Assembly (NCBI GenBank): GCA_903848955.1
Contig: CAINHS010000066.1
Span: 1 to 46,311 of the forward strand
DNA: 46,311 nucleotides
Reading direction: 5' to 3'
DNA from: an uncultured beta proteobacterium
Lineage (GTDB): Bacteria; Pseudomonadota; Gammaproteobacteria; Burkholderiales; Rhodocyclaceae
The notes under the pieces were generated by a model. That model was not told where the DNA came from. It made no database searches and saw only the letters and a list, made by a program, of their open reading frames with translations. Shown here piece after piece: positions 18,085 to 42,150 of this stretch. A program made the translations under genes and the position numbers. How positions within the stretch are numbered: position 1 is the first letter of the stretch; each line of letters starts with the position of its first letter.

Positions 18085-19047
18085 CTACCGCTGCGGCCGC
18101 CCGCCCGCCGTGGCCCTGTTCAGCAGTTGAATGCCTGCGGCGAGAAGCCCCGGCGCACAGACACTGTGGCCTATCGCCAGCCAGAGATTGAAGCCGCTGA
18201 CCACGGTCAGGCTGCCCAGTGCAAACTCGGCAAGCAACAGGACGATCAGCCACCTGCCTGCCACGCGAGTGGCACCGGCGTTTTGCGCTTGAACCCCGGC
18301 GATCCCCAGCAACAGCAGCGCAGCCGCCGCGCAGTAGCGGTGCAGCAGATGCAGCGTCACCCCGCCGGCGTCGCCCGGCAATGATGCCGCCGCGACAACG
18401 GCGAATGGATTGAGGGCGGTCCAGCCCTCCGCTGCCGGCCACCAGACACCGGCACAAGCCGGCGTCGAGGTGCATGAGACCGCGGCATAGCGGGCGCCGA
18501 TCAAGGCCCCCAAAGCAATCGCCGCAGCCAGCGCGACAAGCCCTCCCCGCAGCGGCAAACCCGGGCGCGACAGATCCGGCCGGGGAGCGCCCGGCTCCGC
18601 CGCCAGCACCATCCGCCAGGACAGGGCAACCAGACCGAGACCGCCAAGCATGTTGACGAAACCGGCCCATACCCGGTGGGCATCGGAACTGAAGATCCCG
18701 ACCAGGGTCAGCAGGATCATCAATGCCAGCAGCATTGCGGCGTAGCGCCCCAGCGGCTGAACCGGCGCGGGCCGCGCGCAATGCCAGGCGGCGAAGAACC
18801 CCAGCAGGAGCGCAAGCGATGCCGCAACGCGGTGCATGATGCGGACAGCGCCCGTGTGCGGATGCGGTCCGCCGGCCAGCAACTGGCCGTAGCAGTCGGG
18901 CCATCCGGCGCAGCCCAGGCCGGCTCCGGTCATGCGTATGTAGGCACTGATGACGACTATCAGGAATGACAAGACGGTAAGCAGCAGCGCCAGGTTTCTG
19001 ATTCTCTTGAGACGGTCGCCCCGACTCGCCATGGCCGCGTCAATCAT
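18085..19047 (-). CDS. ctaA: Heme A synthase (CtaA/COX15 type)
   Basis: 320 aa, eight membrane helices. Converts heme O to heme A for aa3-type oxidases. The conserved histidines are visible in [24 protein letters not shown] and IGHSVCAP, the N-terminal loop RMTGAGLGCAGWPDCYGQL is diagnostic, and a loop cysteine pair occurs in SCTSTPACAG. No cytochrome oxidase, ctaB or sco gene is nearby, although these usually accompany ctaA in betaproteobacteria. Its ATG overlaps the stop of a tiny upstream ORF (ATGA), suggesting coupling. Confidence 0.93.
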   Translation of the reverse strand: MIDAAMASRGDRLKRIRNLALLLTVLSFLIVVISAYIRMTGAGLGCAGWPDCYGQLLAGGPHPHTGAVRIMHRVAASLALLLGFFAAWHCARPAPVQPLGRYAAMLLALMILLTLVGIFSSDAHRVWAGFVNMLGGLGLVALSWRMVLAAEPGAPRPDLSRPGLPLRGGLVALAAAIALGALIGARYAAVSCTSTPACAGVWWPAAEGWTALNPFAVVAAASLPGDAGGVTLHLLHRYCAAAALLLLGIAGVQAQNAGATRVAGRWLIVLLLAEFALGSLTVVSGFNLWLAIGHSVCAPGLLAAGIQLLNRATAGGRPQR

Positions 19048-19154: not shown

Positions 19155-19332
19155 CGGCGCTCCATGTTGAATGAGTCCCTCACACGGCTCTACTATATCC
19201 CTTGGCCGGAATATTTATAGCTCATGTCATCGGCGCACCGCGCAGACCGGATATCTTTCAGGAAATCCGGCGCACACTGCAAGCAATTGGCGGCCCGCCC
19301 GGCCAAGATGGCAAACCCTGCGGAGAAAACCG

Positions 19333-20331
19333 ATGCATGCCACCCTGCACCTGCTGAGCCATACCGACTTCCCGGCCCTGATGCGACGCTCCATCCAGAC
19401 TCTGCAGTTGAACCTCGGCTACCGCTGCAACCAGAGTTGCCTGCACTGTCATGTCAACGCCGGGCCGGCGCGTACGGAAGAAATGACGGCCGAAACCGTC
19501 GACGCCGCGATCGACTTCCTTGCCGCCAACCCGGATGTCAATGCCATCGACCTCACCGGCGGCGCGCCCGAACTCAATCCGCAGTTCCGCCGCCTGGTGA
19601 TCGCTGCCAGGGCGCGCGGCCTGCGCGTCATCGACCGCTGCAACCTGACCATTCTCGAGGAACCGGGCTTCGAGGACCTGGCCGGATTCCTCGCCGGCCA
19701 CCACGTCGAGATCGTCGCCTCATTGCCTTGTTACCTCGAAGAAAACGTCGACAGGCAGCGCGGCAAGGGGGTTTTCGAGGCAAGTCTGCGCGGGCTCAAA
19801 CAGCTCAATGCCCTGGGCTACGGACGGGAGGCAAGCGGGCTCAGCCTCAACCTCGTCTATAACCCCCAGGGCACCGCCCTGCCGCCGCCGCAGGCGGCAC
19901 TGCAAACGGATTACAAGCAGCACCTCGGCGACCGCTACGGCATCGTTTTCAATCAGCTATTCACCCTCGCCAACATGCCCATACAGCGCTTCGGCAGCCT
20001 GCTGATCTCGAAAGGCCGGTTCAACAGCTACATGGACATGCTGCGCACCGCCCACCGGCACGAGAATCTGGAACAGGTGATGTGCCGCAACCTGATCAGC
20101 GTCGACTGGCAAGGCTATCTTTACGACTGCGACTTCAACCAGCAGCTTGGCCTGGGCTTGACCGAAACGGCCGGGAGGCGACTGCACATCACCAGCGCGA
20201 CACCGGCCCTGCTGCAAAGCCTGCCGGTTCGCGTTGCCGATCACTGCTACGGCTGCAGCGCCGGCCAGGGTTCAAGCTGCGGCGGCGCCCTCGGTCATGA
20301 GACTTCGCCGGCGCCCAGTTGCAGCAATTGA
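19333..20331 (+). CDS. arsS: ArsS-like radical SAM/Cys-rich domain protein
   Basis: 332 aa. The radical SAM cluster motif is C32-x3-C36-x2-C39 (RCNQSCLHCH), followed by DLTGGAPELNPQFRRLV (the GGE-like SAM-binding strand). The C-terminal Cys-rich domain carries MCRNLISVDWQGYLYDCDFN and ends CYGCSAGQGSSCGGAL. This is the family annotated as arsenosugar biosynthesis ArsS or rSAM/selenodomain; some relatives encode selenocysteine in the Cys-rich domain, here all positions are Cys codons. GGAG lies 7 nt before the ATG at 19333. The downstream flavoenzymes and transferases are the families that commonly travel with it. No arsM is in the window, so the true substrate is uncertain. Confidence 0.88.
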   Translation: MHATLHLLSHTDFPALMRRSIQTLQLNLGYRCNQSCLHCHVNAGPARTEEMTAETVDAAIDFLAANPDVNAIDLTGGAPELNPQFRRLVIAARARGLRVIDRCNLTILEEPGFEDLAGFLAGHHVEIVASLPCYLEENVDRQRGKGVFEASLRGLKQLNALGYGREASGLSLNLVYNPQGTALPPPQAALQTDYKQHLGDRYGIVFNQLFTLANMPIQRFGSLLISKGRFNSYMDMLRTAHRHENLEQVMCRNLISVDWQGYLYDCDFNQQLGLGLTETAGRRLHITSATPALLQSLPVRVADHCYGCSAGQGSSCGGALGHETSPAPSCSN

Positions 20332-20334
20332 GCG

Positions 20335-20556
20335 TCAGCCCGGGTCGTGCGGCAACAGCCTGGCCTTGAGGCACTCCGGGCAGAGACAGCTTGCCCCGGG
20401 AGAATCCGCGCTGCCTGTCGCCGGCACCGGCAGCAGGGGCGGCAGGCTCGCGCACCAGCACTCCTTGTCGCCGCCCTCCATGCCGCAGCGAAAGCGGGCG
20501 CCGCATTGGGGGCAGACGTTGGTGGCATCCGGCTTGGTCTGACGATCCGGTTCCAT
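20335..20556 (-). CDS. Cysteine-rich CWC-family protein
   Basis: 73 aa with eight cysteines (15, 18, 24, 33, 35, 57, 59, 62). VCPQCGARFRCGM followed by CWCASLPP is the signature of the Cys_rich_CWC family (PF14375 as I remember it), probable zinc-binding proteins of unknown function. It ends 3 bp from the arsS stop in convergent orientation and its start region faces msrB divergently. Confidence 0.8.
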   Translation of the reverse strand: MEPDRQTKPDATNVCPQCGARFRCGMEGGDKECWCASLPPLLPVPATGSADSPGASCLCPECLKARLLPHDPG

Positions 20557-20677
20557 GGGGCTCGCTTGAAAAATCGATGGAACGCATTGTCACCCACGAT
20601 GACTAACAGCGGCAATCTGTAAAGAATATTCAAGCCGGACGGACCAAGCGGCACGTATCGACCCACAGGAGACAATG

Positions 20678-21178
20678 ATGAACCGTCGCAACTGGATTTC
20701 TCGCATTCCCGGACTCATGGCCGCATTCTCGCTACCAGTCGCCTCTGCCGGCGCAGCGAGCGCATTTCCGCTGACCAGGAGCAAGCGCGAGTGGCAGGGG
20801 CAGCTGCCGGCAGACGCCTACCGCGTGCTGTTCGAAGAAGGCACGGAAATGGCCGGCAGCAGCGCGCTGAACGCCGAAAAGCGCGCCGGCACCTTTGTCT
20901 GTGCCGCCTGCAACCTGCCGCTGTTCGACAGCGCCCACAAGTACGAAAGCGGCACCGGCTGGCCGAGCTTCTGGCAGCCGCTGCCGGGTGGCATCGGCAC
21001 GTCGACCGACTTCAAGCTGATCTACCCGCGCACCGAATATCACTGCTCGCGTTGTGGCGGGCACCAGGGCCACGTCTTCAACGACGGCCCGCAACCCACG
21101 GGCAAGCGCTACTGCAATAATGGCGTCGCCTTGAAGTTCGTCCTGCAGGGCGAAACCCTTCCAGCACTGAGGACATAG
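20678..21178 (+). CDS. msrB: Exported methionine-R-sulfoxide reductase MsrB
   Basis: About 166 aa. An N-terminal signal (NRRNWISRIPGLMAAFSLPV, ending GAASA) has a twin-arginine-like RR. The mature part is MsrB: two zinc CxxC pairs (CAAC, CSRC), SGTGWPSFWQP, HCSRCGGHQGHVFNDGP and the catalytic cysteine in RYCNNGVALKF. Reduces the R epimer of methionine sulfoxide. AGGAG is spaced 6 nt from the ATG at 20678 (an adjacent ATG at 20675 is alternative). Two bases separate its stop from the msrA GTG. Export of both enzymes points to protein repair in the envelope. Confidence 0.93.
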   Translation: MNRRNWISRIPGLMAAFSLPVASAGAASAFPLTRSKREWQGQLPADAYRVLFEEGTEMAGSSALNAEKRAGTFVCAACNLPLFDSAHKYESGTGWPSFWQPLPGGIGTSTDFKLIYPRTEYHCSRCGGHQGHVFNDGPQPTGKRYCNNGVALKFVLQGETLPALRT

Positions 21179-21180
21179 CC

Positions 21181-21795
21181 GTGAAATTCCTGATGCGGAC
21201 GATCTGGCTCTGCGCCTTCCTTGCCAGCGCCGCCCATGCCGACACGCCGGCGGCACCGGCCGTGGTGCCGCCGGGCAGCGCCACGGCGATTTTCGCCGGC
21301 GGCTGTTTCTGGTGCATCGAAAAGGACTTCGAGGCGCTGCCCGGCGTCGTCGAAGTGGAATCCGGCTATACCGGCGGCAGGACGGCCAACCCGAACTACG
21401 AGCAGGTCAGCGCCGGCGGCACCGGGCACGCCGAAGCGGTGCGGGTGATCTACGACCCGCGCAAAGTCAGCTATCCGCAACTGCTCGACTATTTCTGGCG
21501 GCACATCGACCCCACGGTCAAGGACCGGCAGTTCTGCGACACCGGCAGCCAGTACCGCAGCGCCATCTACTGGCAGAACGAGGCCGAGCGCAAGGCCGCC
21601 GAGGCCAGCCGCGACGCGCTGCTGAAGAGCGGCAGGTTCAAGCTTATCCACACCGAACTGGCCCCTGCCGGCGCCTTCTGGCTGGCCGAGAACTACCACC
21701 AGGACTACTACAGGAAGAACCCGATCCGCTACAGCTACTACCGCAAATCCTGCGGCAGGGACGCACGGGTGGAAGAAGTCTGGGGCAGCAAGTGA
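21181..21795 (+). CDS. msrA: Exported methionine-S-sulfoxide reductase MsrA
   Basis: 204 aa. Signal peptide (TIWLCAFLASAAHA, likely cut before DTPAAP) and the MsrA catalytic motif GGCFWCIEKDFEALPGV, followed by GYTGGRTANPNYEQVSAGGT, the RQFCDTGSQYRSAIYW segment and a C-terminal Cys (RKSCGRD) that could resolve the catalytic Cys. Reduces the S epimer. Start is GTG at 21181; ATG at 21193 would also keep the signal. It forms a tight pair with msrB and precedes the membrane flavoenzyme fusion by 13 bp. Confidence 0.95.
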   Translation: MKFLMRTIWLCAFLASAAHADTPAAPAVVPPGSATAIFAGGCFWCIEKDFEALPGVVEVESGYTGGRTANPNYEQVSAGGTGHAEAVRVIYDPRKVSYPQLLDYFWRHIDPTVKDRQFCDTGSQYRSAIYWQNEAERKAAEASRDALLKSGRFKLIHTELAPAGAFWLAENYHQDYYRKNPIRYSYYRKSCGRDARVEEVWGSK

Positions 21796-21808
21796 GCATG
21801 CCACACGC

Positions 21809-23953
21809 ATGAGCCGGCGGCGCCTGCTCCTGCTCCTCGCGCTGCTGGCGGCCGTCGCCGCCTTCGTCGCGCTCGACCTCGGCCGTTACCTCAGCCTCGA
21901 CTACTTCAAGGACAAGCAGGCGGCGATCGAGGCCTGGCGCGCGGCGAATCCGGCCATGGCGGCGCTGGCATTCTTCCTCCTCTATGTCGCGGTCACCGGC
22001 CTGTCGCTGCCCGGCGCGACGCTGATGACGCTCGCCGCCGGCGCAATTTTCGGCCTGCTGGCGGGCACCATCCTGGTGTCGTTCGCCTCCAGCATCGGCG
22101 CCACGCTGGCCTTTCTCGCTTCGCGCTTCCTGTTGCGCGACTGGGTACAGCAACGCTTCGGCGACCGGCTGCGGGCGATCAATTCCGGCGTCGAGCAGCA
22201 AGGCGGCTTCTACCTGTTCACCCTGCGCCTGGTGCCGGCCTTCCCCTTCTTCATGATCAACCTGCTGCTGGGCCTGACGCCGATGCGCACCGGAACCTTC
22301 TACCGGGTCAGCCAGGTCGGCATGCTCGCCGGCACCGTCGTGTATGTGAATGCCGGCACGCAACTCTCCCGCATCGACAGCCTGGCGGGCATCCTGTCGC
22401 CGGCGCTGATCGCCTCATTCACCCTGCTCGGCATCTTCCCGCTGATCGCCAGGAGGATCGTCGGGATGATCCAGACGCGTCGCATTTACGCCGGCTGGAA
22501 CAGGCCGCGGCGCTTCCAGCGCAACCTGATTGTCATCGGCGGCGGCAGCGCCGGCCTGGTCACCGCCTACATTGCTGCGGCAGTCAGATCCGAAGTCACG
22601 CTGATCGAGCAGCACAAGCTGGGGGGCGACTGCCTGAACACCGGCTGCGTGCCGTCCAAGGCCCTGATCCGCTCGGCCCGGCTGCTGTCGCAGATGCGGC
22701 ACTCGAAGGAATTCGGCATCCGCTCGGCGCAGGCAGACTTCGACTTCGCCGAGGTCATGGAGCGCGTTCAGCGCGTGGTGCAGACGGTCGAACCCCACGA
22801 TTCCGCCGCGCGCTACACCGCGCTGGGCGTCGAGGTGATCGAAGGCAAGGCAAAAATCGTCTCGCCCTGGGAAGTCGAGGTGGTCGACAAGGACGGTCGC
22901 AGCCGGCGCCTGAGCACGCGCAGCATCGTGATCGCGGCCGGTGCCCGGCCCTTGGTGCCGCCGATACCCGGCATCGACGCGGTCGGCTATCTGACCTCGG
23001 ACACCGTCTGGGCGCTGCGCGAGTTGCCGCAGCGACTGCTCGTCCTCGGCGGCGGCCCCATCGGCACCGAACTGGCCCAGGCCTTCGCCCGCTTCGGCGC
23101 CCGGGTTACTCAAGTGGAAATGGCGCCGCGCCTGCTGATGAGGGAAGACCCGGATGTCTCCGCGCTCGTCCTGCAGCGCTTCCGCGACGAGGGCATCAGC
23201 GTGCTGCTCGAACATCGCGCCAGACAGTTCGTCATCGAAAACGGCGAGAAAATTCTGATCGCCGAACATCGCGACACCGACATCCGCGTTCCCTTCGATG
23301 CCGTGCTGGTGGCCGTCGGCCGTGTCGCCAACCTCAAGGGCTACGGACTGGAGGAACTCGGCATTGCCACCGGACGCACCATCGAGACCAACGAGTTCCT
23401 GCAGACCAAGTACCCCAACATCTATGCCGCGGGCGATGTCGCCGGCCCCTATCAATTCACCCACACGGCGGCGCATCAGGCCTGGTATGCCGCCGTCAAT
23501 GCCCTGTCCGATCCCTTCGCCAGGTTCCGCGCCGACTATTCCGTGATCCCCCGGGCCACGTTTGTCGACCCCGAAGTGGCGTGCGTCGGGCTCAACCAAA
23601 GCGAGGCAACGGAGCGCGGCATCGCTCACGAAATCACGGTCTACGCCATGGACGACCTCGACCGCGCGATTGCCGACGGCGAGGCGCATGGCTTCGTCAA
23701 GGTGCTGACCGTGCCGGGCAAGGACAGGATACTGGGCGTCACCATCGTCGGCGAACATGCCGCCGACCTGTTGGCCGAATTCGTCCTGGCCATGCGCCAC
23801 GGGCTCGGCCTGAACAAGCTGCTCGGCACCATCCACATCTACCCGACGCTGGCCGAGGCCAACAAATTCGCCGCCGGCGCCTGGAAGAAGGCGCATGCGC
23901 CGCAGAAGCTTCTGACCTGGGCGGCCCGCTTTCATGCCTGGCGGCGCGGATAA
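21809..23953 (+). CDS. TVP38/TMEM64 membrane domain fused to mercuric-reductase-like flavoenzyme
   Basis: 714 aa two-domain fusion. Residues 1-220 are a TVP38/TMEM64 (VTT, DedA-like) membrane domain with GATLMTLAAGAIFGLLAGT and FTLRLVPAFPFFMINLLLG. From about 240 a pyridine nucleotide-disulfide oxidoreductase follows: FAD-binding IVIGGGSAGL, redox disulfide C275-LNTG-C280 (GGDCLNTGCVPSKALI), a NAD-binding GGGPIGTELAQAFARFG, the FAD-binding AAGDVAGPYQFTHTA, and the dimerisation domain ending GTIHIYPTLAEANKFA. Probably shuttles electrons between NAD(P)H and a thiol or quinone substrate at the membrane; substrate unknown. It sits in one operon-like run with msrBA and the transferases, 3 bp ahead of the next gene. 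Confidence 0.9.
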   Translation: MSRRRLLLLLALLAAVAAFVALDLGRYLSLDYFKDKQAAIEAWRAANPAMAALAFFLLYVAVTGLSLPGATLMTLAAGAIFGLLAGTILVSFASSIGATLAFLASRFLLRDWVQQRFGDRLRAINSGVEQQGGFYLFTLRLVPAFPFFMINLLLGLTPMRTGTFYRVSQVGMLAGTVVYVNAGTQLSRIDSLAGILSPALIASFTLLGIFPLIARRIVGMIQTRRIYAGWNRPRRFQRNLIVIGGGSAGLVTAYIAAAVRSEVTLIEQHKLGGDCLNTGCVPSKALIRSARLLSQMRHSKEFGIRSAQADFDFAEVMERVQRVVQTVEPHDSAARYTALGVEVIEGKAKIVSPWEVEVVDKDGRSRRLSTRSIVIAAGARPLVPPIPGIDAVGYLTSDTVWALRELPQRLLVLGGGPIGTELAQAFARFGARVTQVEMAPRLLMREDPDVSALVLQRFRDEGISVLLEHRARQFVIENGEKILIAEHRDTDIRVPFDAVLVAVGRVANLKGYGLEELGIATGRTIETNEFLQTKYPNIYAAGDVAGPYQFTHTAAHQAWYAAVNALSDPFARFRADYSVIPRATFVDPEVACVGLNQSEATERGIAHEITVYAMDDLDRAIADGEAHGFVKVLTVPGKDRILGVTIVGEHAADLLAEFVLAMRHGLGLNKLLGTIHIYPTLAEANKFAAGAWKKAHAPQKLLTWAARFHAWRRG

Positions 23954-23956
23954 GAC

Positions 23957-24652
23957 ATGAGGGCTGATCTGTCCATCATCATGCCGGTGCTCGACGAAGC
24001 GCCGCAGATCGTCGAGCACCTCCTGCGGCTGCAGGCATGGCGGGCGAAGGGCGTGGAACTGATCGTGGTCGATGGCGGCAGCAGCGACGGCACGCCGGCC
24101 CTGGCCGGCCCGCTGGCCGATCGCGTACTGACCGCGCCGCGCGGTCGTGCCGCACAGATGAATGCCGGCGCCGCCGCCGGCCAGGCCGCAGTCCTGCTCT
24201 TCCTCCACGCCGACACGACGCTTCCCGCCAACGCGGTGACGGCGCTGCGAACGGCCATGGACGACGGCGCCGCATGGGGACGCTTTGATGTCCGCATCGA
24301 CGGCCGCCAGCCCTTGCTGCGCCTCGTCGAAGGCCTGATGAACCTGCGCTCGCGCCTGACCGGCATCGCCACCGGCGATCAGGCCATCTTCGTCCGACGC
24401 GAGGCATTCGATCTCGTCGGCGGTTACGCCGATCTGCCGCTGATGGAGGACATTGCGCTGTCCGCCGCGCTGAAGAAACTGGCAGCGCCCGCCTGCCTGC
24501 ATGAAACGGTGCTCACTTCAGGCAGGCGCTGGGAGCGGCACGGCGTGCTGCGCACCATCGTGCTGATGTGGTGGCTGCGCGCCGCCTACTTTCTCGGCGC
24601 CGACCCGGCGCGACTGGCACGACGTTATGGCTACCTGCCGCGTGCCGGCTGA
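23957..24652 (+). CDS. GT2 glycosyltransferase, rSAM/selenodomain-associated transferase 2 type
   Basis: 231 aa GT-A fold. LSIIMPVLDEAPQIVEHL, VELIVVDGGSSDGTPALA and FLHADTTLPANAV (DxD-like HAD) are the donor and metal sites; GDQAIFVRREAFDLVGGYAD and LMEDIALSAALKKL form the acceptor side. This matches the TIGR04283-type transferase that co-occurs with ArsS-like radical SAM proteins. Likely glycosylates a small product of the pathway. ATG three bases after the upstream stop; 3' end overlaps the next gene by 26 bp. Confidence 0.85.
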   Translation: MRADLSIIMPVLDEAPQIVEHLLRLQAWRAKGVELIVVDGGSSDGTPALAGPLADRVLTAPRGRAAQMNAGAAAGQAAVLLFLHADTTLPANAVTALRTAMDDGAAWGRFDVRIDGRQPLLRLVEGLMNLRSRLTGIATGDQAIFVRREAFDLVGGYADLPLMEDIALSAALKKLAAPACLHETVLTSGRRWERHGVLRTIVLMWWLRAAYFLGADPARLARRYGYLPRAG

Positions 24653-25265
24653 ATCCATCGAAATCGCAGTCATGGCCAAGGCGCCCGTTTCCGGCTACGC
24701 CAAGACCCGGTTGATCCCGACGCTGGGCGCGGCCGCCGCGGCGCGCCTGCACCGGCAACTGACCCTGCGCACGCTCGCCACCATCCATGCCGCTGGCATC
24801 GGCGCGACGACAGTCTGGTGCGCGCCCGACGCCGGACACCGGTTCTTTCGTGCCTTGCGACAACGCTGCGGACTCCCCTTGCGCGCCCAAGCCGATGGCG
24901 ATATCGGTCAGCGCATGGCTCACGTCTTTGCCGCCGGCGGCGGGCAGCCGCTGCTGCTGGTCGGCACCGACTGCCCGGCCCTGAACGCCGGCCATCTGCG
25001 GCAGGCCGCCGCCGCCCTGCGTTGCGTCGATGCCGTTTTCATAAGCACCGAGGACGGCGGCTACTGCCTGGTCGGACTGCAACAACCGGCCCCGGAACTG
25101 TTCGACGACATCGCCTGGAGCACCGCCGAGGTCATGGCCCGGACCCGCGACCGGCTGGCGCGGCTCGGGCTGAGCTGGAAAGAAGTGGCGATGCTCTGGG
25201 ATGTCGATCGGCCGGAGGACGTGGCGCGCTGGCAAGCCCTGCGGCAACAGGAGGCCGACGCATGA
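24627..25265 (+). CDS. CofC-like nucleotidyl/glycosyl transferase, rSAM/selenodomain-associated transferase 1 type
   Basis: 212 aa. IAVMAKAPVSGYAKTRLIPT is the nucleotide-binding loop, LLVGTDCPALNAGHLRQA the TDxP motif, and STEDGGYCLVGLQ the product-side motif of the CofC/TIGR04282 group. Members resemble cofactor guanylyltransferases and are paired with the TIGR04283 transferase. The ATG at 24627 overlaps the upstream gene by 26 bp; GTG at 24642 is an alternative. The stop overlaps the next ATG (ATGA). Confidence 0.85.
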   Translation: MATCRVPAESIEIAVMAKAPVSGYAKTRLIPTLGAAAAARLHRQLTLRTLATIHAAGIGATTVWCAPDAGHRFFRALRQRCGLPLRAQADGDIGQRMAHVFAAGGGQPLLLVGTDCPALNAGHLRQAAAALRCVDAVFISTEDGGYCLVGLQQPAPELFDDIAWSTAEVMARTRDRLARLGLSWKEVAMLWDVDRPEDVARWQALRQQEADA

Positions 25266-26365
25266 CGCGCCTGATCCTGATCGGCGGCGGCCATGCCCAC
25301 GTCCATGTGCTGGCAGCGCTGGCGGCGAAGCCCATGGCCGATACCGACGTCACGCTGCTGTCGCCGTATTCCCGCCAGATTTATTCGGGCATGCTGCCCG
25401 GCTGGATCGAAGGCCGCTACGCCATTGAAGACTGCTGCCTGGCGCTCGACCTGCTGGCGCAGCGTGCCGGCGTCCGCCTGGCGCAGAGCGCCTGCGACGA
25501 ACTCGATCTCGAAGCACGGCAGGTGCTCTGCGCCAACGGCGACAGCATCCCGTTCGACCATGTTTCGATCGACAGCGGCCCCGTCGCCCATCCGGATGAC
25601 CTGCCCGGCGCGCTCGAACACGCCTTGCCTGTGCGACCCATCGAAGGCTTTGTCGCTGCCTGGCCCGGCCTGCTGGAGCGGGCGCGGCAATCCGAGTTGA
25701 AGCTGGCGATCGTCGGCGACGGCGCTGCGGCGGTCGAACTGGCCTTTGCCATGCAGGCCCGTTTTGCTGCCGAAGGGCTGGACCATGCGCGCCTCGCCCT
25801 TATCGGCGGCAACCACCGGCCGTTGGCCTGCTTTCCCCTTGCGTTGCGCCGCAAGGCAATGCAACTGCTCGCGGCGAAGGGCATCGCGCACCAGGCAGGC
25901 CGGCGCGCAGTCGCCGTGACGCCAGATCATGTCCAACTCGACGACGGCTCACAACTCGCCGCCGATGCCGTGCTGGTCGCCACTGGCGCGGCGGCGCCTT
26001 CCTGGCCGGCGCACAGCGGACTGGCCACGGACAGTGACGGCTTCATCCGCGTCAACCGGAGGCTGCAGAGCCTCTCCCACCCCTTTGTGTTCGCCGCCGG
26101 CGATGTCGCCGCCTACAGCGACGCCCGCCCCAAGTCAGGCGTGTTTGCCGTGCGCGCCGGGCCGCCTCTGGCTGCAAACCTGCGCGCCCTTTGCTGCGGA
26201 CAGGCCCTGCACGAATGGCTGCCGCAAAAGCGCGCGCTCTACCTGATCAGTACCGGCAACGGCAATGCCCTGGCGTCATGGGGCGGCTTCAGCGCATCCG
26301 GCGCCTGGGCATGGCGCTGGAAGGACAGGATAGACCGGCGCTTCATGGCGCAATTCGGGGCCTGA
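25262..26365 (+). CDS. Stand-alone SelD-N-terminal-type pyridine nucleotide-disulfide oxidoreductase
   Basis: 367 aa. FAD-binding LILIGGGHAHVHVLAALA, IYSGMLPGWIEGRY and the second Rossmann LAIVGDGAAAVELAFAM, then FVFAAGDVAAYSDARPKSGV and AVRAGPPLAANLRA. This is the NDH-2-like family (TIGR03169 as I remember it) that elsewhere is fused to the N-terminus of selenide-water dikinase SelD. Here it is free-standing with no SelD. No CxxC disulfide is visible, so an NADH:quinone-type role is more likely than a disulfide reductase. AGGAG precedes the ATG, which overlaps the upstream stop. Confidence 0.88.
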   Translation: MTRLILIGGGHAHVHVLAALAAKPMADTDVTLLSPYSRQIYSGMLPGWIEGRYAIEDCCLALDLLAQRAGVRLAQSACDELDLEARQVLCANGDSIPFDHVSIDSGPVAHPDDLPGALEHALPVRPIEGFVAAWPGLLERARQSELKLAIVGDGAAAVELAFAMQARFAAEGLDHARLALIGGNHRPLACFPLALRRKAMQLLAAKGIAHQAGRRAVAVTPDHVQLDDGSQLAADAVLVATGAAAPSWPAHSGLATDSDGFIRVNRRLQSLSHPFVFAAGDVAAYSDARPKSGVFAVRAGPPLAANLRALCCGQALHEWLPQKRALYLISTGNGNALASWGGFSASGAWAWRWKDRIDRRFMAQFGA

Positions 26366-26372
26366 GAACCCC

Positions 26373-27755
26373 TCAAGGCAACCCGGCCGCTTTCAGGATG
26401 GCACGCACGAAGTTACGAGTGTGGGCGCCGAAATTGCCCATCAGGTCGGCAACTTCATGGTCCAGTTCGGCGCGTCGGGCAGGATCCCGGTGCGACAGTT
26501 CGGCCAGCAGGTCGACCCTGTCGCCTTGTACGCCGAAGTCATAGTCCGGATCCGCCACATAGCCCTTGGGCATGGTTGCCATCAGCAACGCCGCCAGGCC
26601 CGGGCCATGCGCATGGGCCTGGCGCGCGACGACATCCCTGAGGTAGGCATCCGACCAGGCGGGATAGGATGCATCGCGCGCATCGCTGCGCAGGGCAAGA
26701 ACGACGGGGCTGTCCAGTCTCGCCTGCGCCGCACTCTGCAACAGTTGCAACTGGTAGCGCTCAAGTGCCAGATGACGGTTGGAGAGCAGAACGGTGAGAT
26801 TGCGCTTCATTGCCGGCAGACCGGCCAGCGCCAGGATGTTTGCCGTGATCAGCCCCACGGCGGACTCGCCGGGCGCGAGACTGGCGTGATACGGCTGCGT
26901 CAGGTCCTGCACGTAATGCAGCGCAAGCCCGGTAAAGCGCCAGCCCCAGTAGGCATGTCCGGTACGGAAGGCGAGGACGGCCAGGGTCGAGTACTGGTGC
27001 GCACGCAACAGCGGAAATGTCCGCCGGAGGAAGGGCGCGGCCTGGTAGATCACGCTGCTTTCGTGAAAGAAACCCATGTGAAACGGCGCCTGGGTGGCAA
27101 ACGCCAGTGCCGGATTGCCGAACGGCAGAGGGCCGAAGCCGTAGGTCTTGCCCCATGCGCCGGGACTGTCCTGCCAGCAGTTGATGTCGAGGCCGTAGTC
27201 CGGTTCATCGGTAGCGGATGCGACCACCTCCAGCGCCGGGACGCGTTCGCCCGGCGCCAGCGCGACGAAGCGCGGGAAGAAGCCGGCGGGCTGCGGCAAG
27301 CTGCTCGCGGCCGCGAAGGGCAGCGCTCTGCGCTGCGGCACCGCCTCCTGCCCGTCCGGCTGGAGGTAGAGCGCAAAGCGGCTGTCCTGCGCGATGCGCA
27401 GTGCCCGGAAAAACGCCATCCTTCTGGCCGCATCCGGGGCCCCCGCCTCCGGCCTGAAATCGAGCGCCGACGGCCGCGGCGGATAGGCGTCGATATTGGC
27501 CCGCGCCCAGACTTCCTGCCCGGCCAGGAGTTGCGCAACGGCTTTTTCTTCCGCCTTGAGGAAGGCGTCGAGGGCTTCCGCTTGCACCGGCGGCGCTGCG
27601 GCAATCTCTGGCATACGCTCGAAGGCGCGGTAGGCCGGCAAGCTGTGGTTTTCCCAGGCGCCGGCCTCGCCAACAGGCATCCCGCAAAAACACAGGAACA
27701 CGAGCGCCGACCGCGCGGCGGCCTCGATGATCCGGATCACTGCCCGTGCCGCCAT
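26373..27755 (-). CDS. Exported zinc phospholipase C/P1-nuclease-like protein
   Basis: 460 aa. The signal peptide (about 1-33) ends AGA and the mature chain starts at Trp34 (WENHSLP), the position where bacterial phospholipase C and P1 nuclease use the N-terminal Trp as a zinc ligand. H280-x3-D284-x5-H290 (HYVQDLTQPYH) exactly matches the zinc spacing of Bacillus cereus phospholipase C; H267 (GHAYWGW) is a further candidate ligand. The protein is longer than known enzymes, so substrate is uncertain. It is convergent with the flavoprotein gene (7 bp apart) and lies 25 bp downstream of the chemoreceptor gene. The start, ATG or a GTG 9 bases upstream, lacks a strong Shine-Dalgarno. Confidence 0.75.
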   Translation of the reverse strand: MAARAVIRIIEAAARSALVFLCFCGMPVGEAGAWENHSLPAYRAFERMPEIAAAPPVQAEALDAFLKAEEKAVAQLLAGQEVWARANIDAYPPRPSALDFRPEAGAPDAARRMAFFRALRIAQDSRFALYLQPDGQEAVPQRRALPFAAASSLPQPAGFFPRFVALAPGERVPALEVVASATDEPDYGLDINCWQDSPGAWGKTYGFGPLPFGNPALAFATQAPFHMGFFHESSVIYQAAPFLRRTFPLLRAHQYSTLAVLAFRTGHAYWGWRFTGLALHYVQDLTQPYHASLAPGESAVGLITANILALAGLPAMKRNLTVLLSNRHLALERYQLQLLQSAAQARLDSPVVLALRSDARDASYPAWSDAYLRDVVARQAHAHGPGLAALLMATMPKGYVADPDYDFGVQGDRVDLLAELSHRDPARRAELDHEVADLMGNFGAHTRNFVRAILKAAGLP

Positions 27756-27780
27756 GGATGGCACCGCCCGTTGCCTGCAC

Positions 27781-41965: not shown

Positions 41966-41973
41966 CAGGCCTG

Positions 41974-42150
41974 GTCGTCGGGAGAGAGTGACACTTTTCC
42001 CACCGTCACCGCCGAAGGCGCAACCCCCAGGAACCGCTCAGGCAAAAGGGCCGACGACGCAGCAAAAATCTGGAGAGCGGCAGCTCGCTGCAACACGCGA
42101 AGCCTGCCCGCCGACGGAGTAAATCTCTCAGGCGCCAAGGACAGATGGGG
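41974..42150 (+). ncRNA. Tandem glycine riboswitch
   Basis: Two aptamers in series upstream of gcvT. Aptamer 1: P1 GTCGTCGG (41974-) pairs with CCGACGAC (42051-), enclosing GAGAGAG, CCGCCGAAGG, CCCCAGGAACCGCTCAGGCA. Aptamer 2: ATCTGGAGAG (42068-) to CAGAT (42142-), with ACGGAGTAAATCTCTCAGGC. A short A-rich linker separates them. These are the conserved glycine-aptamer elements. In other bacteria the RNA turns on gcv genes when glycine is abundant. Confidence 0.93.

What the first reader, a model, noticed from the sequence alone, without database searches (positions are those of the whole stretch)
19333..26365. ArsS-like radical SAM cluster with two transferases and two flavoenzymes but no arsM
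An ArsS-like radical SAM/Cys-rich protein is followed by the TMEM64-oxidoreductase fusion, both rSAM/selenodomain-associated transferases (CofC-like and GT2-like) and the SelD-N-terminal-type flavoprotein. The three genes from the GT2-like transferase to the flavoprotein overlap or nearly touch. Family knowledge links ArsS to arsenosugar synthesis from a methylated arsenical, but the methyltransferase is missing here and exported Msr genes are present. The cluster may make a different nucleoside-derived product, or use imported methylarsenic or a remote arsM.
Basis: partly seen in the sequence, partly recalled or inferred. Interest (0 to 1): 0.75.

Follow-up and report, generated by a model that had tools for sequence, protein, structure and literature searches.

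The report
Arsenosugar-type gene cluster without arsM
This bacterium carries the genes thought to build arsenic-containing sugars but lacks the usual gene that first methylates the arsenic, a gap that turns out to be common in its relatives and raises the question of which arsenic compound the pathway starts from.

Summary
No arsM was found in the window's 99.97%-complete, 151-contig draft genome (best 46 bits against a cut-off of 263; 22.7 against 400), although it has arsR-arsC-acr3 and selD. The gap is common: 47 of 65 ArsS genomes in a 200-genome order sample show no arsM at E 1e-40. ArsS looks unchanged: it keeps 105 of 106 columns invariant in 21 ArsS encoded in one locus with an arsM-type gene, and arsM presence is scattered over the ArsS tree. 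Best reading: the usual ArsS adenosylation, fed by methylarsenic made elsewhere. Not excluded: ArsS acting on unmethylated arsenite. An antisense CWC gene separates arsS from the MsrB-to-flavoprotein run, so these are probably two transcription units; Msr genes lie near ArsS in 6 of 146 loci. By-product: an unannotated calcineurin-fold family detected in 31 of 200 genomes, all 31 with ArsS, but not detected here.

The parts
19333..20331 (+). arsS-like radical SAM protein (332 aa from ATG 19333; an in-frame ATG at 19171 gives 386 aa). CX3CX2C at residues 32/36/39; Cys at residue 316 in GSSC, which fits the GxxU position of selenoprotein members
   Evidence: TIGR04167 446 bits, PF12345, PF04055; conservation test; GxxU motif of TIGR04167 from a PMC13188914 passage
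20335..20556 (-). 73-aa Cys-rich CWC protein between arsS and msrB, opposite strand
   Evidence: PF14375 42.8 bits, cut-off 24
20675..21178 (+). MsrB with N-terminal export-like leader (leader judged by eye)
   Evidence: TIGR00357, PF01641
21181..21795 (+). MsrA with export-like leader (judged by eye), GTG start
   Evidence: TIGR00401, PF01625
21809..23953 (+). TMEM64/VTT-disulfide oxidoreductase (MerA/lipoamide-DH-like) fusion; CLNTGC redox pair at residue 275 and HIYPT at 676
   Evidence: PF09335, PF07992, PF02852; motifs
23957..24652 (+). GT2-like transferase, TIGR04283
24627..25265 (+). CofC-like transferase, TIGR04282 (DUF2064)
25262..26365 (+). SelD-N-terminal-type FAD oxidoreductase, TIGR03169, stand-alone
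18085..19047 (-). COX15/CtaA heme A synthase, flanking gene also seen near ArsS in three relatives (4 of 146 loci with the window)
26373..27764 (-). 463-aa protein without Pfam or NCBIfam match at E 0.001; right-hand border

Best explanation
This is an ArsS module of the usual kind whose arsenic-methylating partner is not encoded in the assembled genome. Arsenate and arsenite are handled by arsC and acr3 (genes shown). Methylated arsenic made by other microbes enters the cell; the TMEM64-anchored disulfide oxidoreductase keeps it trivalent; ArsS attaches the 5'-deoxyadenosyl group of SAM to the trivalent dimethylarsenical; adenine is removed; and the two transferases convert the 5-arsenoribose to a glycosylated arsenosugar-type product. 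Shown: genes, order, conservation of ArsS, no arsM found in the assembly, patchy arsM in relatives. Inferred: every chemical step, uptake of the substrate, and the product.
For: ArsS keeps 105 of 106 columns invariant among 21 ArsS encoded in one locus with an arsM-type gene; 39 of the 46 other ArsS rows from arsM-less order genomes keep 101 or more, mean 104.5 (the 7 left out of that mean belong to a divergent clade, see against). arsM status changes at least 14 times for 19 arsM rows of 66 on the ArsS tree, near random (shuffles 16.6 +- 1.4, 41 of 500 as low), so arsM comes and goes with little change in ArsS. Of the 10 listed genomes with the most similar ArsS, 6 carry an arsM at E 1e-20 and 4 show none; in five of the six it is on another contig than arsS (contig lengths and positions), in the sixth the distance is not known. 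The same parts stand in one locus with a methyltransferase and mtnP in Acinetobacter portensis, and as TMEM64, mercuric reductase, arsM, TMEM64, arsS in Pseudanabaena. MTAP homologues lie in 8 of 146 ArsS loci, as expected if an arsenonucleoside is split next. Importer-type genes (PhnD, PhnE or sodium-solute symporter) lie in 22 of 144 ArsS loci, 20 of them without arsM in the locus. ArsS still goes with arsM overall: 18 of 65 against 6 of 135 (p 6.6e-6).
Against: No importer was seen beside the window's arsS (genes from 15 to 31 kb scanned). No tool here shows substrate or product. With 47 of 65 ArsS genomes showing no arsM, dependence on outside methylarsenic would have to be very common. 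The importer link is with the MPE family (18 of 22, p 1e-9), and importers are not significantly rarer where arsM is in the locus (2 of 22, p 0.53). Seven arsM-less order genomes (with one arsM-bearing) form a divergent ArsS clade that keeps only 87-91 of the 106 columns, so some ArsS without arsM has changed.
Confidence: 0.5

Rival explanations
1. ArsS in arsM-less genomes adenosylates inorganic arsenite (or monomethylarsenite) directly, giving an unmethylated or less methylated arsenonucleoside; no methyltransferase is needed.
For: 47 of 65 ArsS genomes of the order show no arsM at E 1e-40; phylum sample at E 1e-30: outside one family (f76, 55 of 60 with arsM) only 13 of 55 ArsS genomes have it. 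Own genome has arsR-arsC-acr3, so intracellular As(III) would be at hand. Precedent in print for a radical SAM enzyme acting at arsenic: ArsL in arsinothricin (PMC8552651 and PMC12159101 passages).
Against: No residue set separates 39 ArsS of arsM-less genomes from 21 ArsS of arsM-bearing loci: ten columns differ by more than half in make-up and none of these is invariant in either group.
Confidence: 0.2
2. The organism has an arsM that the assembly lacks (gap or plasmid), or methylates with a distant enzyme, so the pathway is complete.
For: 151 contigs; completeness is counted on core genes (recalled). Plasmid-borne ArsS loci exist (52 plasmid records). Nine weak methyltransferase matches in the genome. 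Remote arsM in 6 of the 10 nearest relatives.
Against: Two arsM profiles both fail with all first-look candidates scored (46 of 263 bits, 22.7 of 400); the pattern recurs in 46 other ArsS genomes of the order sample.
Confidence: 0.17
3. The module makes a non-arsenic nucleoside-derived product.
For: arsM not found; phosphonate-type ABC transporter genes sit beside some ArsS loci. An eight-member lone ArsS clade has lost 15-19 of the 106 columns and shows no partner genes in its loci.
Against: Window ArsS is not in that clade and keeps 105 of 106 columns; its partners match arsM-bearing loci.
Confidence: 0.1

Closest known systems
Cyanobacterial arsenosugar genes (ArsM + ArsS, shown in Synechocystis PCC 6803; cited as Xue 2019 in PMC8552651, passage seen; Xue 2019 itself not held)
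   Same: ArsS family (TIGR04167), TMEM64 and mercuric-reductase-like partners (Pseudanabaena plasmid)
   Different: no arsM found in the assembly; TMEM64 and reductase fused; extra GT2, CofC-like and SelD-N-type genes
Acinetobacter portensis plasmid locus (L228)
   Same: ArsS, TMEM64-FAD oxidoreductase fusion, TIGR04283, TIGR04282 in the same order
   Different: adds DUF547, a methyltransferase, phosphate transporter and mtnP; no Msr or SelD-N-type gene annotated in the stretch read
ArsS loci of the ten most similar ArsS (L050-L059, 77-80% identity; titles name uncultured betaproteobacteria, Rhodocyclales, Sulfuritalea)
   Same: ArsS; in L050 and L051 also CtaA, MsrB and MsrA; in L051 GT2 and CofC
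   Different: TMEM64 fusion and flavoprotein not detected in the fetched stretches of L050-L059 (several are short); L051 and L058 carry the MPE gene and a symporter

Membership tests
ArsS (TIGR04167) | profile score above the curated cut-off | tested here: met
   446 bits against 300
ArsS (TIGR04167) | CX3CX2C radical SAM motif and C-terminal DUF3641 domain | tested here: met
   PF04055 47.6 bits, PF12345 178.9 bits; C32/C36/C39 (sequence)
ArsS (TIGR04167) | residues invariant in ArsS encoded in one locus with arsM | tested here: met
   105 of 106; the exception is Thr to Ser at residue 309. No characterised ArsS sequence was at hand for comparison
ArsS (TIGR04167) | adenosylation of a trivalent arsenical | not testable with these tools
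   needs enzyme assay; the chemistry is cited in PMC12159101 (passages)
Complete arsenosugar pathway | arsM in the locus or genome | tested here: not met
   NF008823 46 bits of 263, NF038099 22.7 of 400; draft assembly
Complete arsenosugar pathway | TIGR04282 and TIGR04283 transferases named for arsenosugar biosynthesis | tested here: met
   195 of 134 and 272 of 182 bits
Arsinothricin cluster | ArsL-type radical SAM enzyme | not tested
   no ArsL profile or sequence was compared; the window gene is ArsS by profile
MPE (ArsS partner of relatives) as calcineurin-like phosphoesterase | fold | tested here: met
MPE (ArsS partner of relatives) as calcineurin-like phosphoesterase | D-x-H first motif and H-x-H last motif (recalled) | tested here: not met
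   GGLYGN in 36 of 37 sequences at the first motif, HTC in 37 of 37 at the last; CGC in 37 of 37; motif positions assigned by eye, not from coordinates

The most novel reading that the evidence does not exclude
ArsS systems without arsM are a branch of their own in which ArsS works on arsenic that the cell did not methylate, arsenite itself or an imported arsenical. In about half of the ArsS genomes of the order a calcineurin-fold protein (MPE) with a cysteine-substituted metal site (CGC plus HTC) accompanies ArsS, binding or processing the arsenonucleoside; the window shows a reduced form with neither arsM nor MPE detected.
Probability: 0.2. Interest if true: 0.8.

Novelty: new variant of a known kind. 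Interest (0 to 1): 0.5.

Why it matters
If ArsS is widespread without arsM, the annotation 'arsenosugar biosynthesis' in many betaproteobacterial genomes rests on an untested substrate. One in-vitro assay with As(III), MAs(III) and DMAs(III) would tell whether these bacteria salvage methylarsenic made by neighbours or build carbon-arsenic bonds on inorganic arsenic. The MPE family gives a second handle: a family without a Pfam or NCBIfam match in the members tested, detected only in ArsS genomes of the order sample.

Tried and rejected
Rejected: Msr genes as part of the system (6 of 146 loci, four of these six, the window included, in one ArsS subclade). Rejected for the window's type: a changed ArsS active site; the divergent eight-member clade is an exception, and 7 of its 8 genomes show no arsM. 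Rejected: MPE and arsM as strict alternatives: MPE shares a locus with arsM in 2 of 36 MPE loci, p 0.066, and within ArsS genomes 6 of 31 against 12 of 34, p 0.18.

Limits of the counts. arsM in the order sample was counted at E 1e-40 (24 of 200); only 8 of 200 pass the curated cut-off, and NF038099 at E 1e-15 gives 23 of the 24, none above its cut-off. In some searches at most 11 first-look candidates per genome were scored (11 of 21 and 11 of 26 for the own genome in those calls; all 21 were scored), so misses are possible. The 28 genomes were chosen by me, some because arsM was already seen, so 14 of 28 is not a rate; no completeness is told for them. In Aromatoleum anaerobium (L081) an arsM match lies about 15 kb from arsS on a contig of the same length, outside the fetched stretch, so locus counts of arsM are lower bounds. 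Gene calling in relatives is a home-made ORF picker, and many loci end at contig ends. L118 counted as an arsM locus only by a loose cluster and was left out.

Other blanks. PDB sequence search gave no close match for ArsS (YydG E 1.2e-5 over 66 residues) and none for MPE at E 0.01 (at E 10 one weak match). The viral fold library gave mostly generic phosphatases. One search translated the gap in a wrong frame; one search found the right one. Rfam at gathering scores: one match, a glycine riboswitch at 41969-42063. Papers: six searches of the held library list no title on ArsS without arsM; most subscription papers are not held, so this is no claim that it is unpublished. Passages only were seen of PMC8552651, PMC12159101, PMC8801600, PMC13188914, PMC13077682 and PMC11237643; PMC6467767 is not held.
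Full report
OBSERVATION. ArsS scores 446 bits against a cut-off of 300 for TIGR04167. The GT2-like, CofC-like and SelD-N-type genes overlap by 26 and 4 bases, and the six genes from MsrB to the flavoprotein are at most 13 bases apart (coordinates). One correction matters: arsS is not joined to them. A 73-aa Cys-rich CWC gene lies on the minus strand at 20335-20556 between arsS and msrB, so arsS and the MsrB-to-flavoprotein run are probably separate transcription units (inference; no transcript data).

ABSENCE OF arsM. The window lies in a draft genome of 3,621,306 bases, 151 contigs, 99.97% complete. The general arsenite methyltransferase profile NF008823 gives at best 46 bits against 263 (all 21 candidates scored) and the arsenosugar-type ArsM profile NF038099 22.7 against 400. 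Other arsenic genes are present: an ArsR/SmtB-type regulator, an ArsC of the thioredoxin type (below its cut-off, 75 of 174 bits) and ACR3 (446 of 282.8 bits) in a row at G000:C79:283-2330. Another ArsR-family gene stands next to a permease with partial similarity to SaoE (132 of 325 bits). A selD above cut-off is present (440 of 125 bits). So the cell has genes for inorganic arsenic but no detected arsenic methylation gene.

HOW UNUSUAL IS THAT. In a sample of 200 genomes of the same order, 65 have ArsS above cut-off and 24 have an arsM match at E 1e-40, 8 of them above its curated cut-off; 18 of these 24 are ArsS genomes. So 47 of 65 ArsS genomes show no arsM, while the two genes are still associated (18 of 65 against 6 of 135, p 6.6e-6). 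NF038099 at E 1e-15 finds 23 of these same 24 genomes. In a phylum-wide sample of 299, 115 have ArsS at E 1e-60 and 86 have arsM at E 1e-30, 68 both; one family (f76) accounts for 55 of the 68, and outside it 13 of 55 ArsS genomes have arsM. So the state depends on the lineage. Of the ten listed genomes with the ArsS most like the window's (77-80% identity), six carry an arsM at E 1e-20, four of them above cut-off.

IS THE ENZYME CHANGED. I aligned 21 ArsS encoded in one locus with an arsM-type gene, the order ArsS and the window. Of 106 columns invariant in the 21, the window keeps 105. Of the 46 other ArsS rows from arsM-less order genomes, 39 keep 101 or more, mean 104.5; the other 7 belong to a divergent clade. 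No column separates the 39 from the 21. A maximum-likelihood tree of 89 ArsS shows arsM status changing at least 14 times for 19 positive rows of 66, close to shuffled labels (16.6 +- 1.4; 41 of 500 at or below 14). The window's nearest rows in the tree are L053, L051 and L050. The divergent clade of eight (seven arsM-less genomes and G039, which has arsM) keeps only 87-91 of the 106 columns, has lost Cys127 (alignment numbering) in all eight, and shows none of the partner genes in its loci: that is where a new function would be sought, and the window is not in it.

PARTNERS. Across 146 ArsS loci (80 named, 65 from the order sample, the window) the TMEM64 fusion or a relative of it is found in 86, GT2 in 83, CofC-like in 72, SelD-N-type in 31, a relative of one ArsM query in 18, MsrB and MsrA in 6. 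The same parts occur in named annotated records: Acinetobacter portensis (ArsS, TMEM64-FAD oxidoreductase, DUF547, TIGR04283, TIGR04282, methyltransferase, phosphate transporter, mtnP) and Pseudanabaena (TMEM64, mercuric reductase, arsM, TMEM64, arsS). MTAP homologues stand in 8 of 146 loci and in B. glumae, which fits release of adenine from an arsenonucleoside as the second step (inference).

CONCLUSION. The best-supported reading is an ArsS module with the usual chemistry and an external or lost methylation step (0.5). Direct action on arsenite (0.2), an arsM missed by the draft assembly (0.17) and a non-arsenic product (0.1) remain. The chemistry of ArsS is taken from passages of PMC8552651 and PMC12159101; no biochemical step was tested here.

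Noticed in passing
L057:9839-10786 and 36 further sequences; A1, A2: MPE: unannotated calcineurin-fold family detected only in ArsS genomes (31 of 31 in a 200-genome sample), with GGLYGN in place of the usual first metal motif (recalled) and conserved CGC and HTC cysteines.
   Followed up: partly
L136, L144, L149, L153, L155, L169, L182, L192: A separate ArsS clade with no partner genes seen in its loci that has lost Cys127 (alignment numbering) and 15-19 of 106 conserved columns in all; possibly a different function.
   Followed up: partly
L065, L069, L073, L078, L122, L133, L171, L185 and others: Phosphonate-type ABC transporter genes (PhnD/PhnE/PhnC) or a sodium-solute symporter beside ArsS, 18 of 22 such loci with MPE; possible importers of an arsenical.
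   Followed up: partly
L228 (NZ_CP096121.1): An ArsS-methyltransferase-mtnP locus sits on a plasmid whose name carries NDM-1.
   Followed up: no
L173 and L174 (G132): One genome with two ArsS copies: one locus has MPE, the other an ArsM relative.
   Followed up: no
window 41969-42063, + strand: Glycine riboswitch aptamer, 62.3 bits.
   Followed up: no
L213 (Burkholderia glumae plasmid): ArsS with MPE, a second radical SAM protein, DUF547, both transferases and an MTAP on one plasmid; MPE in 47 plasmid records, all B. glumae.
   Followed up: no
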